Part shown: piece by piece, positions 4,620 to 29,783 of the stretch
Layout: each line of letters starts with the position of its first letter
Position numbering within the stretch: position 1 is the first letter of the stretch
Assembly: GCF_011764425.1 (NCBI RefSeq)
Contig: NZ_BLPF01000001.1
Location: 3,153,001 to 3,217,000, forward strand
Length of the DNA: 64,000 bases
From: Phytohabitans houttuyneae
GTDB lineage: Bacteria; Actinomycetota; Actinomycetes; Mycobacteriales; Micromonosporaceae
Direction of reading: 5' to 3'
Made by a program: the position numbers and the translations under genes
Notes under the pieces: generated by a model
The model's database searches: none
The model's input: only the letters and a program-made list of their open reading frames with translations
What the model was told of the DNA's origin: nothing

Positions 4620-5015
4620 ATGCAGACCAAAGCGACCACACCGGCGCCAGAACACTGGTTGAGTCTCGAACTCGAGCCCCGGCTCGAGGCGGCTCAGATG
4701 GCCCGCGAGCTGGTCGCCACCGCCTGCGCCAGCTGGCACCGGGAAAGCCTGGCCGAGCCCGCGAACATCGCGATCTCCGAGCTGGTCAACAACGCGGTGC
4801 TGCACGCGGGTACGCCGCTGACCGTCCAGTTGGCCACACACCGGGAGGAACTGCTCATCGCCGTCCGGGACGGGTCCACCGAGCCGCTGCGGCCACGAAC
4901 CCCGGCACACACCTCGTCCGGCGGGCGCGGCCTGCTGCTCCTGGACGCGATCGCCGCCAGCTGGGGCTGCGCGGTCCGGGATGGCGGCAAGGTCGTGTGG
5001 GCGGTACTCCGCTGA
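4620..5015 (+). CDS. ATP-binding protein, anti-sigma-type HATPase (RsbW/SpoIIAB-like)
   Basis: 131 residues from ATG 4620 (GTG 4611 is the alternative). A single histidine-kinase-like ATPase fold of the anti-sigma type: N-box AISELVNNAVLHAG, G1 box AVRDGST, G2 GGRGLLLLDAIA, and the typical end SWGCAVRDGGKVVWAVL. Such proteins bind a sigma factor or phosphorylate a STAS antagonist. No partner is adjacent. The C-terminus closely resembles that of the STAS-HATPase fusion at 25616-26359. Its stop is 3 bp from the stop of the convergent response regulator. Confidence 0.85.
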   Translation: MQTKATTPAPEHWLSLELEPRLEAAQMARELVATACASWHRESLAEPANIAISELVNNAVLHAGTPLTVQLATHREELLIAVRDGSTEPLRPRTPAHTSSGGRGLLLLDAIAASWGCAVRDGGKVVWAVLR

Positions 5016-8037: not shown

Positions 8038-8505
8038 GTGGACGGACGGCGATGGCCCTACCACCAGTCGGCGGCTGTGTCTTCACTTCGGTACGGTTGG
8101 CCCATCGACACGGTCCCGCTCCTCACCGAGACCTTCGAGCGCAGCCAGGTCACCCGGCTGCGCCATGCGGTCGCGTCGTGCGTGGGCAAGGCCGGCTTGG
8201 TCGGCCAACGCCTTGACGACTTCGTGCTGGCGGTCAACGAGCTGCTCACCAACGCGGTGCGCCACGGCGGCGGCAAGGGCCGGCTGAGCCTGTGGCGCCG
8301 GGGCGACGAGGTGGTCTGCGAGGTCTCCGACCACGGCGAGGGCTTCGACGACACGCGCCTGTCCAGCGGCGCCCGCCCCGCCGCCGACACCCCGGGCGGG
8401 TGGGGCCTGTGGCTGGCCGGCAGGCTCAGCGACCGCATGGAGGTGCAGACCGGCCCAGGTGGCACGACCGTGCGGATCAGCGCCGCGCTGGGGCCAGCTT
8501 CGTAG
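8038..8505 (+). CDS. ATP-binding anti-sigma-type HATPase
   Basis: 155 residues from GTG 8038 (GTG 8077 is possible and would remove a nonconserved N-terminus). HATPase fold with N-box AVNELLTNAVRHGGGKG, G1 SDHGEGFDD and G2 TPGGWGLWLAGRLSDR. Probably a Ser kinase/anti-sigma regulator. It is divergent from the PP2C gene with about 70 bp between starts, so the antagonistic kinase and phosphatase may share a control region. Confidence 0.8.
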   Translation: MDGRRWPYHQSAAVSSLRYGWPIDTVPLLTETFERSQVTRLRHAVASCVGKAGLVGQRLDDFVLAVNELLTNAVRHGGGKGRLSLWRRGDEVVCEVSDHGEGFDDTRLSSGARPAADTPGGWGLWLAGRLSDRMEVQTGPGGTTVRISAALGPAS

Positions 8506-24387: not shown

Positions 24388-25590
24388 GTGGCGACGGTGC
24401 TCTCCCCCGCCCGGCTCGGCCCGCGAGACGTGGTGCGGGTCGGCGGTGCCGGGCTGCGGACGCGGCCGCTGCGGGCGTTCCTGTCGGCGCTCGGCATCGC
24501 GATCGGCATCGCCGCGATGACCGCCGTCGTCGGGATCTCCTCGTCCAGCCGGGCCGAGCTCGACCGCGAGCTGGCCGCGCTCGGCACCAACCTGCTGACC
24601 GTCGGGCCGGGCAAGACAATCTTCGGCGGGGACGCGACGCTGCCCACCGAGTCGGTGGCGATGGTGTCCCGCATCGGACCGGTGAGCGAGGTCGCGGCGA
24701 CCGGAAAGGTTCCGGACACCAAGGTCTACCGCACCGACCGGATACCGGAGGCGGAGACCGGCGGCATGACCGTGCAGGCCGCCCACCTCGACCTGCTCGG
24801 CACGGTCGGCGCCACGCTCACCAGCGGCACGTGGCTGAACGCGGCGACGTCCCGCTACCCGGCCGCCGTGCTGGGCGCGGCGGCGGCCCGGCGGCTTGGC
24901 ATCGGGGCGGCGGGCGCCGGCATCCAGGTGTACGTGGGCGGCAAGTGGTTCACCGTCATCGGCGTCCTCGACGAGGTGCCGCTCGCGCCCGAGCTTGACT
25001 CGGCGGTCCTCGTCGGGTGGGCGGCGGCGGAGTCCTATCTGGACTTCGACGGCCACCCCACTACCGTCTACACGCGCTCGGACGACGCGTCCGTCGAGGC
25101 GGTACGCGCCGTGCTCGCATCGACCGCCAACCCCGAGGCGCCCAACGAGGTGGAGGTCTCCCGGCCGTCCGAGGCCCTGGAGGCGCAGCGGGCGACCGAC
25201 CGCGCGTTCACCGGGCTGCTGTTGGGTCTGGGCGCGGTGGCGCTGCTCGTGGGCGGGGTGGGAGTGGCCAACACGATGGTCATCTCCGTGCTGGAGCGGC
25301 GCGCCGAGATCGGCCTGCGCCGCTCGCTGGGTGCCACGCGCGGGCAGATCCGGGTCCAGTTTCTGGCCGAGTCGCTGCTGCTGTCGGCGCTCGGCGGGGC
25401 GGGTGGCGTGGTGCTGGGCATCGCGGTCACCACCGTGTACGCGAGCACCCGCTCGTGGCCCTCGGTGGTACCGGCGTGGGCGATGGCGGGTGGGGTGGGC
25501 GCGACGCTCGTGATCGGGGCGATCGCCGGCCTGTACCCGGCGATCCGCGCGGCCCGCCTCGCGCCGACGGAAGCGCTTGCCACACCCTGA
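24388..25590 (+). CDS. ABC transporter permease, FtsX/MacB family
   Basis: 400 residues from GTG 24388, which follows the ATPase stop without a gap. N-terminal TM (RAFLSALGIAIGIAAMTAVV), a large extracytoplasmic MacB_PCD-like domain (about 50-270), then three C-terminal TM segments with the FtsX motif ERRAEIGLRRSLGATRGQIR. Forms a dimer driven by the ATPase. With the adaptor and lipoprotein it resembles a Gram-positive MacAB-type mechanotransmission system rather than an importer. Confidence 0.9.
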   Translation: MATVLSPARLGPRDVVRVGGAGLRTRPLRAFLSALGIAIGIAAMTAVVGISSSSRAELDRELAALGTNLLTVGPGKTIFGGDATLPTESVAMVSRIGPVSEVAATGKVPDTKVYRTDRIPEAETGGMTVQAAHLDLLGTVGATLTSGTWLNAATSRYPAAVLGAAAARRLGIGAAGAGIQVYVGGKWFTVIGVLDEVPLAPELDSAVLVGWAAAESYLDFDGHPTTVYTRSDDASVEAVRAVLASTANPEAPNEVEVSRPSEALEAQRATDRAFTGLLLGLGAVALLVGGVGVANTMVISVLERRAEIGLRRSLGATRGQIRVQFLAESLLLSALGGAGGVVLGIAVTTVYASTRSWPSVVPAWAMAGGVGATLVIGAIAGLYPAIRAARLAPTEALATP

Positions 25591-25615: not shown

Positions 25616-26359
25616 CTACCGGCGCGGTGCCGCTTCGAGCACTGCCCAGACGACCTTTCCGCCCTCGGTGGGCAGGCACCCCCAGCTCAGGGAGACGGTG
25701 TCCACCAGGGCCAGCCCACGCCCGGAGAGGGACGTCAGCGAGACCTCTCGTTGCAGCCTCGGCTCTTCGGAGCTGCCGTCCCGCACGGCGATCTGCAGGT
25801 ACTGGTCACGCAGCGAGAGCCGGAGCGTCATCATCGTGTGCGCATGCGCGACGACGTTGTTGACGAGCTCGGTCACCACCGTGCACGCCGGCCCCAACAG
25901 CCCCGGGACCTCCCACTGGAAACACACCTCGGTGACGATCTCGCGGGCCCGCCGCCCGGCGCCGATAACGGGGAGCAGGTCTTCGCTGGCCATGGGCACG
26001 GCCGCACGGCGGACGAGCGAACGCACGCCGTCGGCGAGGCTTGGCAGCACGGGCATGCTGCCATCGATCGAGCGCTGCCGCAGCAGCTCGGCCGCTTCGC
26101 TCTGCGGGGCGCAGAGCACGAGCGGGACAGCCGGCCACCGCTCCGTCTGCCGGACCACCGCCGGGAAGACGGACAGCGCACTCGGCTCGGCGAGGCGCAT
26201 TTCGGAGAGGTCGACGAGGACCGCCTCCGGCTGCTCGGCCAGACACTTGATAAGTGACGAACGGACCGCGGCCGCGCCTTTGACATCCAGGACTCCCACC
26301 ACGCGCGCCAGCGCATACGCCTGGTGGTCGTCGATTAAACACTGGACGGCTGTCGGCAT
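25616..26359 (-). CDS. STAS-HATPase fusion protein (anti-sigma factor antagonist joined to anti-sigma-type kinase)
   Basis: 247 residues from ATG 26359. Residues about 1-110 are a STAS-like domain (LIKCLAEQPEAVLVDLSEMR), without the DSSG-type phosphoacceptor; the equivalent stretch is LAEPSALSVF. Residues about 130-240 are an anti-sigma HATPase with an intact N-box ELVNNVVAHA (164-173), G1 RDGS and G2 SGRGLALVD, ending SWGCLPTEGGKVVWAVL. Antagonist and kinase modules are normally separate proteins. Paralogous to the fusion at 27042-27791 over the whole length. Divergent from the STAS-sigma operon. Confidence 0.85.
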   Translation of the reverse strand: MPTAVQCLIDDHQAYALARVVGVLDVKGAAAVRSSLIKCLAEQPEAVLVDLSEMRLAEPSALSVFPAVVRQTERWPAVPLVLCAPQSEAAELLRQRSIDGSMPVLPSLADGVRSLVRRAAVPMASEDLLPVIGAGRRAREIVTEVCFQWEVPGLLGPACTVVTELVNNVVAHAHTMMTLRLSLRDQYLQIAVRDGSSEEPRLQREVSLTSLSGRGLALVDTVSLSWGCLPTEGGKVVWAVLEAAPRR

Positions 26360-26658
26360 GGCACCTCGTTGTCCGCAGGGAGCCTCCCCGCGAGGTTACC
26401 CGCCGTTCGCCCCCGAAAACGTGGCGGCTGGCGGTCCGGGCGTGACCGTGGATCACCAAAAGGTGACGACCCCACCGCATTACCCGGATGCGACCGCACC
26501 GAAACGGTTAATGTGCCGCGCGGCGCTGCCCGCTGCCGCCGCATGTGCCCAGGTCAGCGCGGGCTGCGTGGGCGGCCGCGAGGGCGGGCTCCACCCCTTC
26601 GGCAACGGCACCGCCGCCACGACATCGCGTCCGACATGTCGCTCTGTGCCCAAGGGGC

Positions 26659-26683
26659 GTTACGGGTTTGCCCCCTCGGGTAC
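26659..26683 (+). promoter_or_regulatory. SigB/SigF-type promoter before the STAS operon
   Basis: GTTA (26659-26662), 15 bp, then GGGTAC (26678-26683), close to the GTTT-N14-16-GGGTA consensus known for SigB/SigF-group sigma factors of actinobacteria. It lies 24 bp before the ATG of the STAS gene, and two genes downstream is a sigma factor of that very group, so positive autoregulation is plausible. Confidence 0.55.
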
Positions 26684-26706
26684 GGTCCCTTGCGGAGGGA
26701 TGGTCG

Positions 26707-27042
26707 ATGACATACAACTTCGACCTCCGGGTGGAGATGCCGGGCGGTGGCACCGCGCGAGTCGTCATCAGTGGCGAGATCGACATGGCTGTCACAGAAA
26801 CGCTCTCGGCGAGCATGTTCGGCGTTCTCCGCGCCGACGGGGTCCGATTGGTCGAGGTGGAGTTGTCCGCGGTGGGATTCATTGATGCCTGCGGTGTGGG
26901 CGCCCTGCTCGCGGCGCGCAACGACGCGCGCGGGCAGGGAAAGACGTTTGTGGTTTCCGGCGCGCGCGGCCTGCCGCGCCGCGTTCTGGAGATGACGGGT
27001 GTGCTGGGCGCGCTGGCCAGAAAGCCGGTCGGGGCGAGGTGA
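26707..27042 (+). CDS. STAS domain protein (anti-anti-sigma factor)
   Basis: 111 residues from ATG 26707. Single STAS fold: ARVVISGEIDMAVTETLSAS, then VEVELSAVGFIDACGVGALL, then GKTFVVSGARGLPRRVLEMTG. The site where SpoIIAA and RsbV carry the phosphorylated Ser (DSSG) reads D60-A61-C62-G63, so the classical Ser switch appears absent. Stop overlaps the start of the next gene (GTGATG), hence coupled. Predicted to bind an anti-sigma HATPase, perhaps the fused one downstream. Confidence 0.85.
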   Translation: MTYNFDLRVEMPGGGTARVVISGEIDMAVTETLSASMFGVLRADGVRLVEVELSAVGFIDACGVGALLAARNDARGQGKTFVVSGARGLPRRVLEMTGVLGALARKPVGAR

Positions 27043-27791
27043 TGCTCAAGCGGTTGCGGTGCACATTCGTTCACGAGCCACCGATGGCGGTGCTGCGCGT
27101 CGACGGGCAGCTGACCCTCCGGACGGCGACGCAGCTTCGCAGGGCTCTGCTCAAATGCCTTGCCGAGCAACCGATCGCGATCCTTGTCGACGTCTCCGGA
27201 CTCACGGTCGAAGACGACATGAGCGTCACGGCGTTCATGGCGTCCGCGCGTCACGCGGCGGCCTGGCCCGGCGTGCCGCTGCTCATCTGCGCGCCCTCGC
27301 CCGGCATGCGGGCGGCATTGCGGCGGCTCCGTGCCGATCGGCACCTGACGCTCTGCACCGATCTCGACCACGGGCGCACGATGGCTGCGGCCCGCGTGCA
27401 GCCCGCACAGGTGCGCGACAGCTTTCCCGCCGCCGCGGCATCGGTGCGCGCCGCCCGCACCCTCGTCGCCGGCGCCTGCGAGCGCTGGCGGCTGCCGGTG
27501 GTGGCCGAGCCGGCACGCATCGTCACCACCGAGCTGGTCACCAACGCGGTGCGCCAGGCCGGTACCCCTATCGAGCTGACCGTCACCCGCGGCGGCCGCC
27601 ACCTTCATCTCGCCGTTCGCGACTTCCACGGCCGGCGTTCGCGGCTCGTCACGACGGCGGACGAACCGACGCCCGGTGCAGCCGGATTTCCGCTCGTCGA
27701 GGCTGTCTCGTCAAGTTGGGGTTGCACTTTCCTGCCCGACGGTAAGGTCACGTGGGCAAGCCTTCATCTCACGGCACGTTCGCGTATCTGA
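27042..27791 (+). CDS. STAS-HATPase fusion protein, second paralogue with degenerate ATP lid
   Basis: 249 residues from ATG 27042 (GTG 27039 possible). STAS-like part about 1-110 (LLKCLAEQPIAILVDVSGL), HATPase part about 130-240 with N-box ELVTNAVRQA (164-173). The G1 box reads VRDFHG instead of VRDGS and G2 reads GAAGFPLVE instead of GRGL, so nucleotide binding or kinase activity may be impaired. Residues 36-52 align with the 25616 fusion without gaps. Lies between the free STAS protein and the sigma factor. Confidence 0.8.
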   Translation: MLKRLRCTFVHEPPMAVLRVDGQLTLRTATQLRRALLKCLAEQPIAILVDVSGLTVEDDMSVTAFMASARHAAAWPGVPLLICAPSPGMRAALRRLRADRHLTLCTDLDHGRTMAAARVQPAQVRDSFPAAAASVRAARTLVAGACERWRLPVVAEPARIVTTELVTNAVRQAGTPIELTVTRGGRHLHLAVRDFHGRRSRLVTTADEPTPGAAGFPLVEAVSSSWGCTFLPDGKVTWASLHLTARSRI

Positions 27792-27892
27792 TCCGGTGGG
27801 ATATTCCGCCAGCCAACTGGGTAGGAATCGCGAGTTCGCCCGCGCCCATTCGGGGCCGTGCCTTCAGGCTTCTGTCATTCAAGGAGGCGGTG

Positions 27893-29002
27893 ATGCACTC
27901 GGAACAGGACACTGCCCAGCTGAACCTCGACGAGGAGGCGGCGCGGTATGGCGAACGCGCCGTACATGACCCGTCCGCTCGGGCGGAGTTCGTGGAGCTG
28001 TGCCTGCCCCTTGCCCATCGGCTCGCCCACCGCTACCGCGGAAGGGGTGAGCCGTTCGCGGACCTGGAGCAGGTAGCCCGCCTCGGCCTGGTCAAGGCGG
28101 TCGACCGGTATGACGCGGAACGCGGTTCCTTCACCGCGTTCGCGGTCATCACCATCCTGGGCGAGCTGCGCAAACACTTCCGTGACCGCACCTGGGGCGT
28201 GCGCGCGCCACGGCGGCTCCAGGACCTGGTCGTGCAGATCAGGCACGCGGGTTCGGACCTGACAAACACGCTGTCCCGCGCGCCCAGCACCACCGAGCTC
28301 GCGGATCGCCTGCACACCACCACCGACGAGGTGGACAAGGCGATGCTGTCGGCCGCCGGCTACACGTTGCTGTCGCTGAACGCGCCGGTCACCAGCCCGG
28401 GCTCCGGCGGCGGGACAGCCGAACGGGGCGACCTGATCGGCGAGGTCGACGGCGATCTGGCCGCGATCGACGACCGGCTCACCATCCAGTCCCTTCTGGA
28501 CCGGCTGCCGGAACGCGAGCGGCAGATCCTCATCCTCCGCTTTTACGGCAACCTCACCCAGGTGGAGATCGCGCAGCGGTGCGGCATCTCGCAGATGCAC
28601 GTGTCGCGGCTGCTTTCCAAGACGTTGACCTGGCTGCGCAACGCCATGCTCAGCGACACGCCACCGCACTGGGGCGATGTGGAGGAGGCGGGGCTTGTCG
28701 CGCCGCGCCTGCGGGTGACCACGACACCGGCGGGCGGCGGCACGCTGACCGTCGCGATCGGCGGCGAGGTCGACCGCGACAGCGCCGACGAGCTGCGCCA
28801 GGCCATCCTGAACGGGCTGGCGCGCCGCCCGAACACACTGCAGCTCGACCTTTCCGCGGTCCCGTTCATCGACGCGGCCGGGATCGCCGCACTTGTCTCG
28901 GGCTACCAGGAGTCGCGGCGGGCCGCCGTCGATCTGCGCCTGCGCGGCACCCAGCCGCACGTCCGGAGGATTCTCGCGATCGCACGGCTGCCCTATATGT
29001 AG
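27893..29002 (+). CDS. SigB/SigF/SigG-family RNA polymerase sigma factor with C-terminal STAS domain
   Basis: 369 residues from ATG 27893, with AAGGAGG 5-11 bp upstream. Sigma region 2 (LPLAHRLAHRYRGRGEPFAD, 39-58, with LEQVARLGLVKAVDRYD), region 3 (about 105-165) and region 4 (210-250, DRLPERERQILILRFYGNLT and VEIAQRCGISQMHVSRLL). Residues about 270-369 are a complete STAS domain: LTVAIGGEVDRDSADELRQA, LDLSAVPFIDAAGIAALVSG. Ordinary SigB-group factors end near residue 260. The phosphoacceptor position is D327-A-A-G. The fusion could let the sigma factor bind its own anti-sigma kinase through STAS, a built-in antagonist. Confidence 0.9.
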   Translation: MHSEQDTAQLNLDEEAARYGERAVHDPSARAEFVELCLPLAHRLAHRYRGRGEPFADLEQVARLGLVKAVDRYDAERGSFTAFAVITILGELRKHFRDRTWGVRAPRRLQDLVVQIRHAGSDLTNTLSRAPSTTELADRLHTTTDEVDKAMLSAAGYTLLSLNAPVTSPGSGGGTAERGDLIGEVDGDLAAIDDRLTIQSLLDRLPERERQILILRFYGNLTQVEIAQRCGISQMHVSRLLSKTLTWLRNAMLSDTPPHWGDVEEAGLVAPRLRVTTTPAGGGTLTVAIGGEVDRDSADELRQAILNGLARRPNTLQLDLSAVPFIDAAGIAALVSGYQESRRAAVDLRLRGTQPHVRRILAIARLPYM

Positions 29003-29006
29003 AAGG

Positions 29007-29783
29007 GTGCAGCCCTCCTCGACCTCGCCGGTGACGTCCGGCGCGGCGGTCTCGTCTGGCGCGGTGGTCGAGGAGGTGCGCGGCGGCTGGTCGCGGGTTG
29101 TCCGCCGGGTGGCGGCCACGGCTGCGGGGCTCGCCGTCCTGGTCGCGGGGACGGCCCTCTGGGAGTACGGCCGGCGGGCCGGCGACACCGTGCCCGCCGA
29201 CCCGGGCGACGTGGTGCTCTTCGCCACGTTCGGCCACTACGGCGGCGAAGCGTGGCTGCGCCGGCGGACCCGGCGTGGTGACCTTCGCTGGCGCCGCGCG
29301 CTGCCCCTGCCCGGTGGGACCCGTCCCGGCCTTGTCGCCCGGCGGTCCAGGCGGTCGCTGGCCATCGACGCCGTCGGCCTGTGCGGCCTCCTCGGCGGCA
29401 CCCTTGTCTTCAGCGGCTCGGCCATAGACGGGTGGCTGGGGCGCATCACGACCGCGATATGCGTCGTGGCGCTGCCCTTGGCCGCGCTGGCGGTCTTCCA
29501 GCGGCTGCGCTGTCCCGTGCTCGTGGCGGTCACCTCACGGGGTGTCGTGGCCGAGGGTGAGGAGCTGCCCTGGGAGCTCATCACATCCGTGCGCCGCGGC
29601 AAGGACGGCGTGGACCTGCGCCTGCGTGAAGACGGCGAGGTGCGGCACGTCAGCGTGGGTGGCCACGAGTGCACCGTGTCCAACGAGCGCCTGGCCGATG
29701 TAATCGCGTACTACCTGGACACGCCGCACCGCCGCAGCACGCTCGACCTCAATGCGCCCGGACCTCTTCCAGCCGTCCGATGA
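29007..29783 (+). CDS. hypothetical membrane protein downstream of the sigma-STAS gene
   Basis: 258 residues from GTG 29007, 4 bp after the sigma stop, so co-transcribed. One TM near 30-50 (VAATAAGLAVLVAGTALWEY), two more around 115-165 (AVGLCGLLGGTLVFSGSAID, ITTAICVVALPLAALAVF), then a soluble C-terminal part resembling a PH-like fold (VAVTSRGVVAEGEELPWELI). No family recognised. Could be a membrane sensor or anchor for the partner-switch set; that is inference from position only. Its last 35 bp overlap the ECF gene on the other strand. Confidence 0.6.
   Translation: MQPSSTSPVTSGAAVSSGAVVEEVRGGWSRVVRRVAATAAGLAVLVAGTALWEYGRRAGDTVPADPGDVVLFATFGHYGGEAWLRRRTRRGDLRWRRALPLPGGTRPGLVARRSRRSLAIDAVGLCGLLGGTLVFSGSAIDGWLGRITTAICVVALPLAALAVFQRLRCPVLVAVTSRGVVAEGEELPWELITSVRRGKDGVDLRLREDGEVRHVSVGGHECTVSNERLADVIAYYLDTPHRRSTLDLNAPGPLPAVR

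What the first reader, a model, noticed from the sequence alone, without database searches (positions are those of the whole stretch)
25616..29783. Partner-switching locus built from fused modules, including a sigma factor with its own STAS domain
In the known SigB/SigF systems the sigma factor, anti-sigma HATPase and STAS antagonist are separate proteins. Here a SigB-group sigma factor (27893-29002) carries a complete C-terminal STAS domain, two paralogous proteins (25616-26359, 27042-27791) each fuse STAS to HATPase, a free STAS protein sits between, and a membrane protein follows 4 bp after sigma. The sequence shows the architecture; that sigma is regulated in cis through its STAS tail, or that the fusions act as self-contained switches, is inference.
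Basis: partly seen in the sequence, partly recalled or inferred. Interest (0 to 1): 0.75.

Follow-up and report, generated by a model that had tools for sequence, protein, structure and literature searches.

The report
Sigma factor fused to STAS tail
A soil actinomycete carries a gene-switch protein that probably wears on its own tail the handle its inhibitor grips; this design was first described in a related bacterium in 2023, and here it comes in an enlarged and duplicated form.

Summary
Window 27893-29002 is one intact ORF: a SigB/F-type sigma factor with a C-terminal STAS domain, beside two STAS-HATPase genes and a free STAS gene. Relatives carry it and the tail is under purifying selection, so it is no frameshift or assembly joint.

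The architecture is not new: it is the sigma-SsdA/SipA system of Actinoplanes missouriensis (Tezuka 2023, PMC10733313). The window holds a Phytohabitans version: divergent sipA, then free STAS, a second sipA with an eroded ATP site, and sigma-STAS. A second sigma-STAS/sipA pair lies elsewhere in the genome.

Added here: 0 of 51 distinct sigma tails have Ser/Thr at the STAS phospho-acceptor (48 have Ala), so the tail is unlikely to be a classical phospho-switch. The published SsdA promoter motif sits 37 bp upstream of sipA, suggesting negative feedback. In another genus 19 genomes have a tail-less sigma, yet 15 keep an intact sipA nearby, so the tail may not be SipA's only target.

Most likely mechanism: SipA docks on the non-phosphorylatable tail and silences sigma in trans; the release signal is unknown.

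The parts
25616..26359 (-). SipA1-like anti-sigma factor: N-terminal STAS, C-terminal HATPase
   Evidence: Pfam STAS and HATPase_c_2 over cut-off; ATP-site residues kept; dN/dS 0.25-0.30 against three Phytohabitans
26397..26420 (-). SsdA-type promoter motif GTTT-n14-CGGGTA, 37 bp before the sipA1 start
   Evidence: only match in 64 kb, 0.07 expected; also upstream of sipA in L077 (= the L031 genome), L032, L033 and the second copy in L044
26707..27042 (+). free STAS protein, motif D-A-C-G (acceptor position Ala)
   Evidence: Pfam STAS_2 and STAS over cut-off; same motif in 4 of 4 Phytohabitans; register from PDB alignments
27042..27791 (+). SipA2-like protein: STAS-HATPase with eroded ATP site
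   Evidence: Pfam; G1 glycine lost in 4 of 4 Phytohabitans; dN/dS 0.25-0.35
27893..29002 (+). SsdA-like sigma factor: SigB/F-type sigma core plus C-terminal STAS tail
   Evidence: Pfam and NCBIfam; relatives; tail dN/dS 0.12-0.18
29007..29783 (+). downstream ORF, membrane-like by eye; probably not part of the system
   Evidence: no Pfam or NCBIfam match; dN/dS 0.53-0.62 and not found in L032

Best explanation
This is a Phytohabitans version of the sigma-SsdA/SipA system. The sigma factor carries a STAS tail that lacks the phospho-acceptor, so by analogy it resembles a permanently dephosphorylated antagonist, the form that an RsbW-like HATPase binds. SipA1 (25616-26359) docks through its HATPase domain on that tail and silences the attached sigma factor in trans. 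Sigma in turn probably transcribes sipA1 from its own type of promoter, closing a negative feedback loop. Shown by others in A. missouriensis: SipA-tail binding, inhibition of sigma by SipA, and the promoter motif. Shown here by sequence: homology, linkage, the missing acceptor and the motif before sipA1. Inferred: that the Phytohabitans proteins behave the same, and that the free STAS (26707-27042) and SipA2 (27042-27791) compete for or buffer SipA1. What releases sigma (nucleotide state of SipA, competition or a modification) is unknown.
For: Same two architectures, adjacent, as in the published system. SsdA and SipA were found in handle G142 by the lengths and residues given in the paper, and in a tree of sigma cores the sampled fusions fall in one clade with SsdA, 97/82. 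The genome's three strongest SipA-like hits all lie beside its two sigma-STAS genes. Acceptor not Ser/Thr in 51 of 51 distinct tails. Tail under purifying selection. SipA1 keeps the ATP-site residues: E164 and D194 invariant in 18 of 18 SipA-like rows. Promoter motif before sipA1 and before the second copy's sipA.
Against: No interaction was tested for these proteins. Of 19 genomes with a tail-less sigma, 15 keep an intact sipA nearby, and SipA's HATPase half stays constrained there. 8 of 24 sigma-STAS loci have no STAS-HATPase gene within 5.5 kb. The strict motif is absent upstream of A. missouriensis sipA and ssdA, and other SigB-type sigmas may read the same motif. HATPase matches are weak and no RsbW/SpoIIAB structure is hit. 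The window's sigma is in a subclade apart from SsdA itself.
Confidence: 0.65

Rival explanations
1. SipA acts mainly on another target (the sigma core or another STAS protein); the tail only tunes affinity and is dispensable.
For: 19 genomes of one genus have a tail-less sigma; 15 of them keep an intact sipA nearby, with HATPase dN/dS 0.10-0.21 in six pairs and the SsdA-type motif before sipA in 14 of 15. Free STAS genes near some fusions keep the acceptor Ser: L080, L085, one of two in L095.
Against: In A. missouriensis SipA bound the tail and no binding to the sigma domain was detected. The tail is under purifying selection where present. SipA's STAS half has higher dN/dS in tail-less pairs (0.30-0.60, six pairs) than in tail-bearing ones (0.15-0.41, eight pairs), which hints that losing the tail matters to SipA.
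Confidence: 0.2
2. The tail works in cis as a built-in antagonist that keeps SipA off the sigma core, so the fusion makes sigma resistant to inhibition.
For: A tail without the acceptor resembles a permanently active antagonist (the behaviour of such mutants in Bacillus is recalled).
Against: In A. missouriensis SipA inhibits sigma-SsdA, no contact with the sigma core was detected, and a tail change (L372P) appeared to lose sigma function rather than escape SipA.
Confidence: 0.1
3. A classical partner switch in which SipA phosphorylates the sigma tail and a phosphatase resets it.
For: SipA1 keeps the ATP-site residues.
Against: Acceptor not Ser/Thr in 51 of 51 distinct tails; Ala in the free STAS of 4 of 4 Phytohabitans; Pro in SipA1 and Asp in SipA2.
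Confidence: 0.03

Closest known systems
sigma-SsdA / SipA of Actinoplanes missouriensis (Tezuka et al. 2023, PMC10733313; abstract, passages and sections 7, 8, 9, 11, 14 seen)
   Same: Sigma-B/F/G core with C-terminal STAS; adjacent STAS-HATPase partner; tail acceptor Ala in SsdA too
   Different: The Phytohabitans locus adds a free STAS gene and a second, ATP-site-eroded SipA, and the genome has two sigma-STAS/sipA pairs; interactions not tested. A. missouriensis also has a second SipA-like gene near by (L130:2326-3066)
Rv1364c of Mycobacterium tuberculosis (passages of PMC10950880 and PMC9138534)
   Same: Partner-switching domains, HATPase and STAS among them, fused in one protein
   Different: PAS-phosphatase-HATPase-STAS order; its STAS has a phosphorylated Ser600; sigma is separate
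SigB-RsbW-RsbV of Bacillus subtilis (passages of PMC7340262 and PMC8256260)
   Same: Sigma, HATPase and STAS domains of the same families
   Different: Three separate proteins; RsbV Ser56 is phosphorylated by RsbW, whereas the tails here have no Ser/Thr there
ECF sigma factors with C-terminal regulatory extensions, such as ECF41 (recalled, no call)
   Same: Regulatory domain fused to the sigma C-terminus
   Different: Different sigma class and different domains

Membership tests
sigma-SsdA/SipA system | Sigma-B/F/G core with C-terminal STAS in one protein | tested here: met
   Pfam and NCBIfam; one clade with SsdA
sigma-SsdA/SipA system | STAS-HATPase partner encoded next to it | tested here: met
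   25616-26359 and 27042-27791; also beside the second copy
sigma-SsdA/SipA system | SipA HATPase binds the sigma tail and inhibits sigma | not testable with these tools
   shown only in A. missouriensis
sigma-SsdA/SipA system | Target promoters GnTT-n14-CGGGTA | tested here: inconclusive
   one strict match in the window, before sipA1; 45 genome matches against 23 in the backwards control; no transcription data
Classical SigB/SigF partner switching | Phosphorylatable Ser/Thr on the STAS antagonist | tested here: not met
   none in the window's four STAS domains; STAS genes elsewhere in the genome were not examined for it
Classical SigB/SigF partner switching | Sigma, HATPase and STAS as separate proteins | tested here: not met
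   fused ORFs
Classical SigB/SigF partner switching | HATPase with intact ATP site | tested here: met
   SipA1 yes, SipA2 no, by sequence only
Classical SigB/SigF partner switching | PP2C/SpoIIE phosphatase acting on the STAS | not tested
   the genome was not searched for PF07228; the two flanking ORFs scanned (24388-25590 and the frame of 29007-29783) gave no phosphatase match

The most novel reading that the evidence does not exclude
A phosphorylation-free partner switch: a STAS domain without its acceptor, fused to sigma, serves as a permanent docking handle, and switching is set by competition among several acceptor-less STAS domains and by SipA's nucleotide state. Lineages can later shed the handle while keeping the anti-sigma factor and its feedback promoter.
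Probability: 0.3. Interest if true: 0.6.

Novelty: new variant of a known kind. Interest (0 to 1): 0.4.

Why it matters
The 2023 paper left open how SipA controls a sigma factor that it seems to touch only at the tail. The missing acceptor in every tail examined, the tail-less lineages that keep sipA, and the Phytohabitans locus with an ATP-site-eroded second SipA are natural variants that make the question testable. If the reading is right, this is a sigma/anti-sigma switch built from partner-switching domains without the phosphorylation that defines them.

Tried and rejected
Frameshift or assembly joint: rejected. Phosphatase between sigma and sipA in other loci: of five such 571-671 aa neighbours scanned, three are cytochrome oxidase subunit I and two are CheR-PAS proteins, none a phosphatase. 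My first reading of the acceptor was one residue off; PDB alignments corrected it, which removed the idea of a Cys in place of the acceptor Ser in the free STAS: the Cys is the next residue. Second SipA as a dying pseudogene: its ATP boxes are eroded but dN/dS is 0.25-0.35. Fusion outside the family: none seen in draws of 396 (phylum), 394 (class) and 397 (order) genomes at E 1e-27; the draws overlap one another and include members of the family; one order genome, G1285, matched over model positions 5-76 only. Not exhaustive: the paper reports one Nonomuraea. In one search the row labelled sigSTAS was sliced out of frame and is void; one search replaces it. A motif-led regulon list (9 of the 30 loci examined, of 45 matches, have a called gene just downstream) is too thin to claim.
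Full report
What is there. The window lies in an 11.3 Mb genome whose sigma-STAS protein is 94-96% identical to those of three named Phytohabitans. Left to right: a STAS-HATPase gene on the minus strand (25616-26359); then on the plus strand a free STAS gene (26707-27042), a second STAS-HATPase gene (27042-27791, start overlapping the previous stop by 1 nt), sigma-STAS (27893-29002) and an unmatched ORF (29007-29783). Pfam finds sigma regions 2, 3 and 4 and a STAS domain at residues 282-365, all over cut-off, and TIGR02980 (SigB/SigF/SigG) is passed. The HATPase matches are only just over cut-off. A profile of 18 STAS-HATPase proteins hits, in the PDB, nine STAS antagonist chains and two sensor-kinase-like chains, but no RsbW or SpoIIAB.

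It is real. The fusion recurs in P. suffuscus, P. maris, P. flavus and two strains named Micromonospora. In the window's genus 5 of 6 sampled genomes match the fusion profile; the sixth, G031, gave only sigma-type matches ending at model position 266 of 378 or earlier. The same genome has a second copy on another contig, sigma at C3:830960-831640 with its STAS tail at 830624-830884, and a STAS-HATPase gene divergent from it. Among four Phytohabitans dN/dS is 0.03-0.06 for the sigma core and 0.12-0.18 for the tail; in eight pairs of tail-bearing genomes of another genus the tail gives 0.03-0.21 (pairwise counts on related genomes, not independent).

It is published. A paper search led to Tezuka et al. 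2023 (PMC10733313; abstract and outline, passages, and sections 7, 8, 9, 11 and 14 seen). Sigma-SsdA is a sigma-B/F/G + STAS protein, SipA a STAS + RsbW-like protein. Two-hybrid: SipA's HATPase binds the STAS tail; no binding to the sigma domain was detected. SipA's own STAS also binds its HATPase. Mutants indicate that SipA restrains sigma. The promoter motif is GnTT-n14-CGGGTA, and two promoters were confirmed in vitro. The paper names Actinoplanes, Pseudosporangium, Couchioplanes, Micromonospora (ctaD between the genes) and one Nonomuraea; 'Phytohabitans' has 0 occurrences in its main text; its supplement was not seen. Searches listed no other paper that I recognised as describing a sigma-STAS fusion; for most of these papers only the listing was seen.

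Link to SsdA. Handle G142 has a contig of 8,773,466 bases (the length that I recall for A. missouriensis 431) and encodes a 379-aa protein with D68, F91, S100 and L372, and beside it a 243-aa protein with S229, as the paper states. In a tree of sigma cores 36 fusion rows (at least three genes are in it twice) fall in one clade, 97/82, with the tail-less L101 nested inside; the sequences outside are eight other sigmas of this genome and one each of G031 and G166. Phytohabitans and L078 form a subclade of their own, 100/100.

Spread. With a region-4 + STAS profile, 220 of 300 family genomes match at 1e-22. This overcounts fusions: 19 genomes with hits near 1e-37 proved tail-less, and hits near 1e-23, which I did not check, are probably sigma only. 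SipA-like proteins: 250 of 300 at 1e-25. Outside the family I saw no fusion in draws of 396, 394 and 397 genomes. In 24 sigma-STAS loci, several from the same genome, 16 have a STAS-HATPase gene within 5.5 kb and 8 do not. In this genome the three strongest of four SipA-like hits lie beside the two sigma-STAS genes.

The acceptor. PDB alignments put the SpoIIAA acceptor directly after the conserved Asp: one chain reads DSSG and the 1tid chain DASG (that 1tid carries the S58A change is recalled). At that place 51 of 51 distinct sigma tails lack Ser and Thr: 48 Ala, one each of His, Gly and Met (tails were taken only where the exact peptide ISQMHVSRL is followed by at least 90 residues). The free STAS has Ala in 4 of 4 Phytohabitans, followed by Cys. 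SipA1 has Pro and SipA2 Asp in 4 of 4. Of the six STAS-only genes printed from other loci, four keep Ser there: L080, L085, L087 and one of two in L095; L088 and the other L095 gene do not (L087 and L088 lie about 6 kb or more from the fusion). The paper's main text has no hits for 'Ser-58' or 'conserved serine'.

ATP site. E164 and D194 (SipA1 numbering) are invariant in 18 of 18 SipA-like rows, and N168, G213 and G215 nearly so (box names are recalled). SipA2 lost the G1 glycine in 4 of 4 Phytohabitans; its G2 box is changed in the window and in L032, and L032 also lost the N-box Asn.

Promoter. The strict n14 motif occurs once in 64 kb (0.07 expected; 7 of 100 shuffles had one), 37 bp before sipA1. 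Across 24 loci the n14/n15 motif lies upstream of 9 of 20 STAS-HATPase genes, 9 of 249 other genes, 0 of 11 STAS-only genes and 0 of 24 sigma-STAS genes. Among the STAS-HATPase genes the spacers 9-13 and 17-22 gave 0 of 20 and spacer 16 gave 1. Fisher p = 3e-7, or 4e-5 after dropping L077, L032 and L033 from the STAS-HATPase side only (5 of 20 genes; the other side was not thinned). Six of the nine 'other' genes are the neighbouring ctaD-like gene (three confirmed by Pfam; three by length, place and sequence start). Against: no match upstream of A. missouriensis sipA or ssdA. Own genome: 45 matches against 23 for the backwards control, both sipA1 copies among them. Other SigB-type sigmas could read the same motif.

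Tail loss. On a tree the label needs 5 changes, at least 2 forced by starred branches, but the sequences are nearly identical and support is poor. sipA lies within about 3.2 kb in 15 of 19 (coordinates) and reads through intact in those 15; in G236 it is adjacent but in two ORFs; G170, G180 and G289 are not among the matching genomes listed at 1e-25. SipA's HATPase half stays constrained: 0.10-0.21 in six tail-less pairs, 0.06-0.30 in eight tail-bearing pairs; its STAS half is looser in the tail-less pairs (0.30-0.60 against 0.15-0.41). The motif precedes sipA in 14 of 15 tail-less and 18 of 25 tail-bearing genomes. This is the strongest result against the tail being SipA's only target.

Verdict. 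Best mechanism: SipA docks on a non-phosphorylatable tail, with feedback through sipA. The binding was shown by others in A. missouriensis; the acceptor loss and the motif are shown here by sequence; the rest is inference.

Noticed in passing
L101, L112-L129: 19 genomes of genus g4 have a tail-less SsdA-like sigma; 15 keep an intact sipA nearby.
   Followed up: partly
L080, L083, L084, L090, L094, L096: The ctaD-like gene (cytochrome oxidase subunit I) near sigma-STAS also has the SsdA-type motif upstream (Pfam for L080, L083 and L096), hinting at a link to respiration.
   Followed up: partly
L112:2477-3204 (G236): sipA beside a tail-less sigma appears as two ORFs, STAS and HATPase, overlapping by 4 bp: real split or sequencing error unknown.
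   Followed up: no
L130:2326-3066: A. missouriensis has a second SipA-like gene near sipA, with two other genes between.
   Followed up: no
G205 and G101 (loci L098, L100, L107, L108): Several sigma-STAS paralogues in one genome: four in G101, four in G205 plus a weaker fifth match there.
   Followed up: no
L176:1586-2068, L187:918-1451: Genes just downstream of the motif elsewhere in the genome include one that looks like a small heat-shock protein and one like a DUF2231 membrane protein (by eye).
   Followed up: no
window 4683-5003 and 8143-8481: Two more HATPase_c_2 matches lie in the same window, about 17-21 kb from the locus.
   Followed up: no
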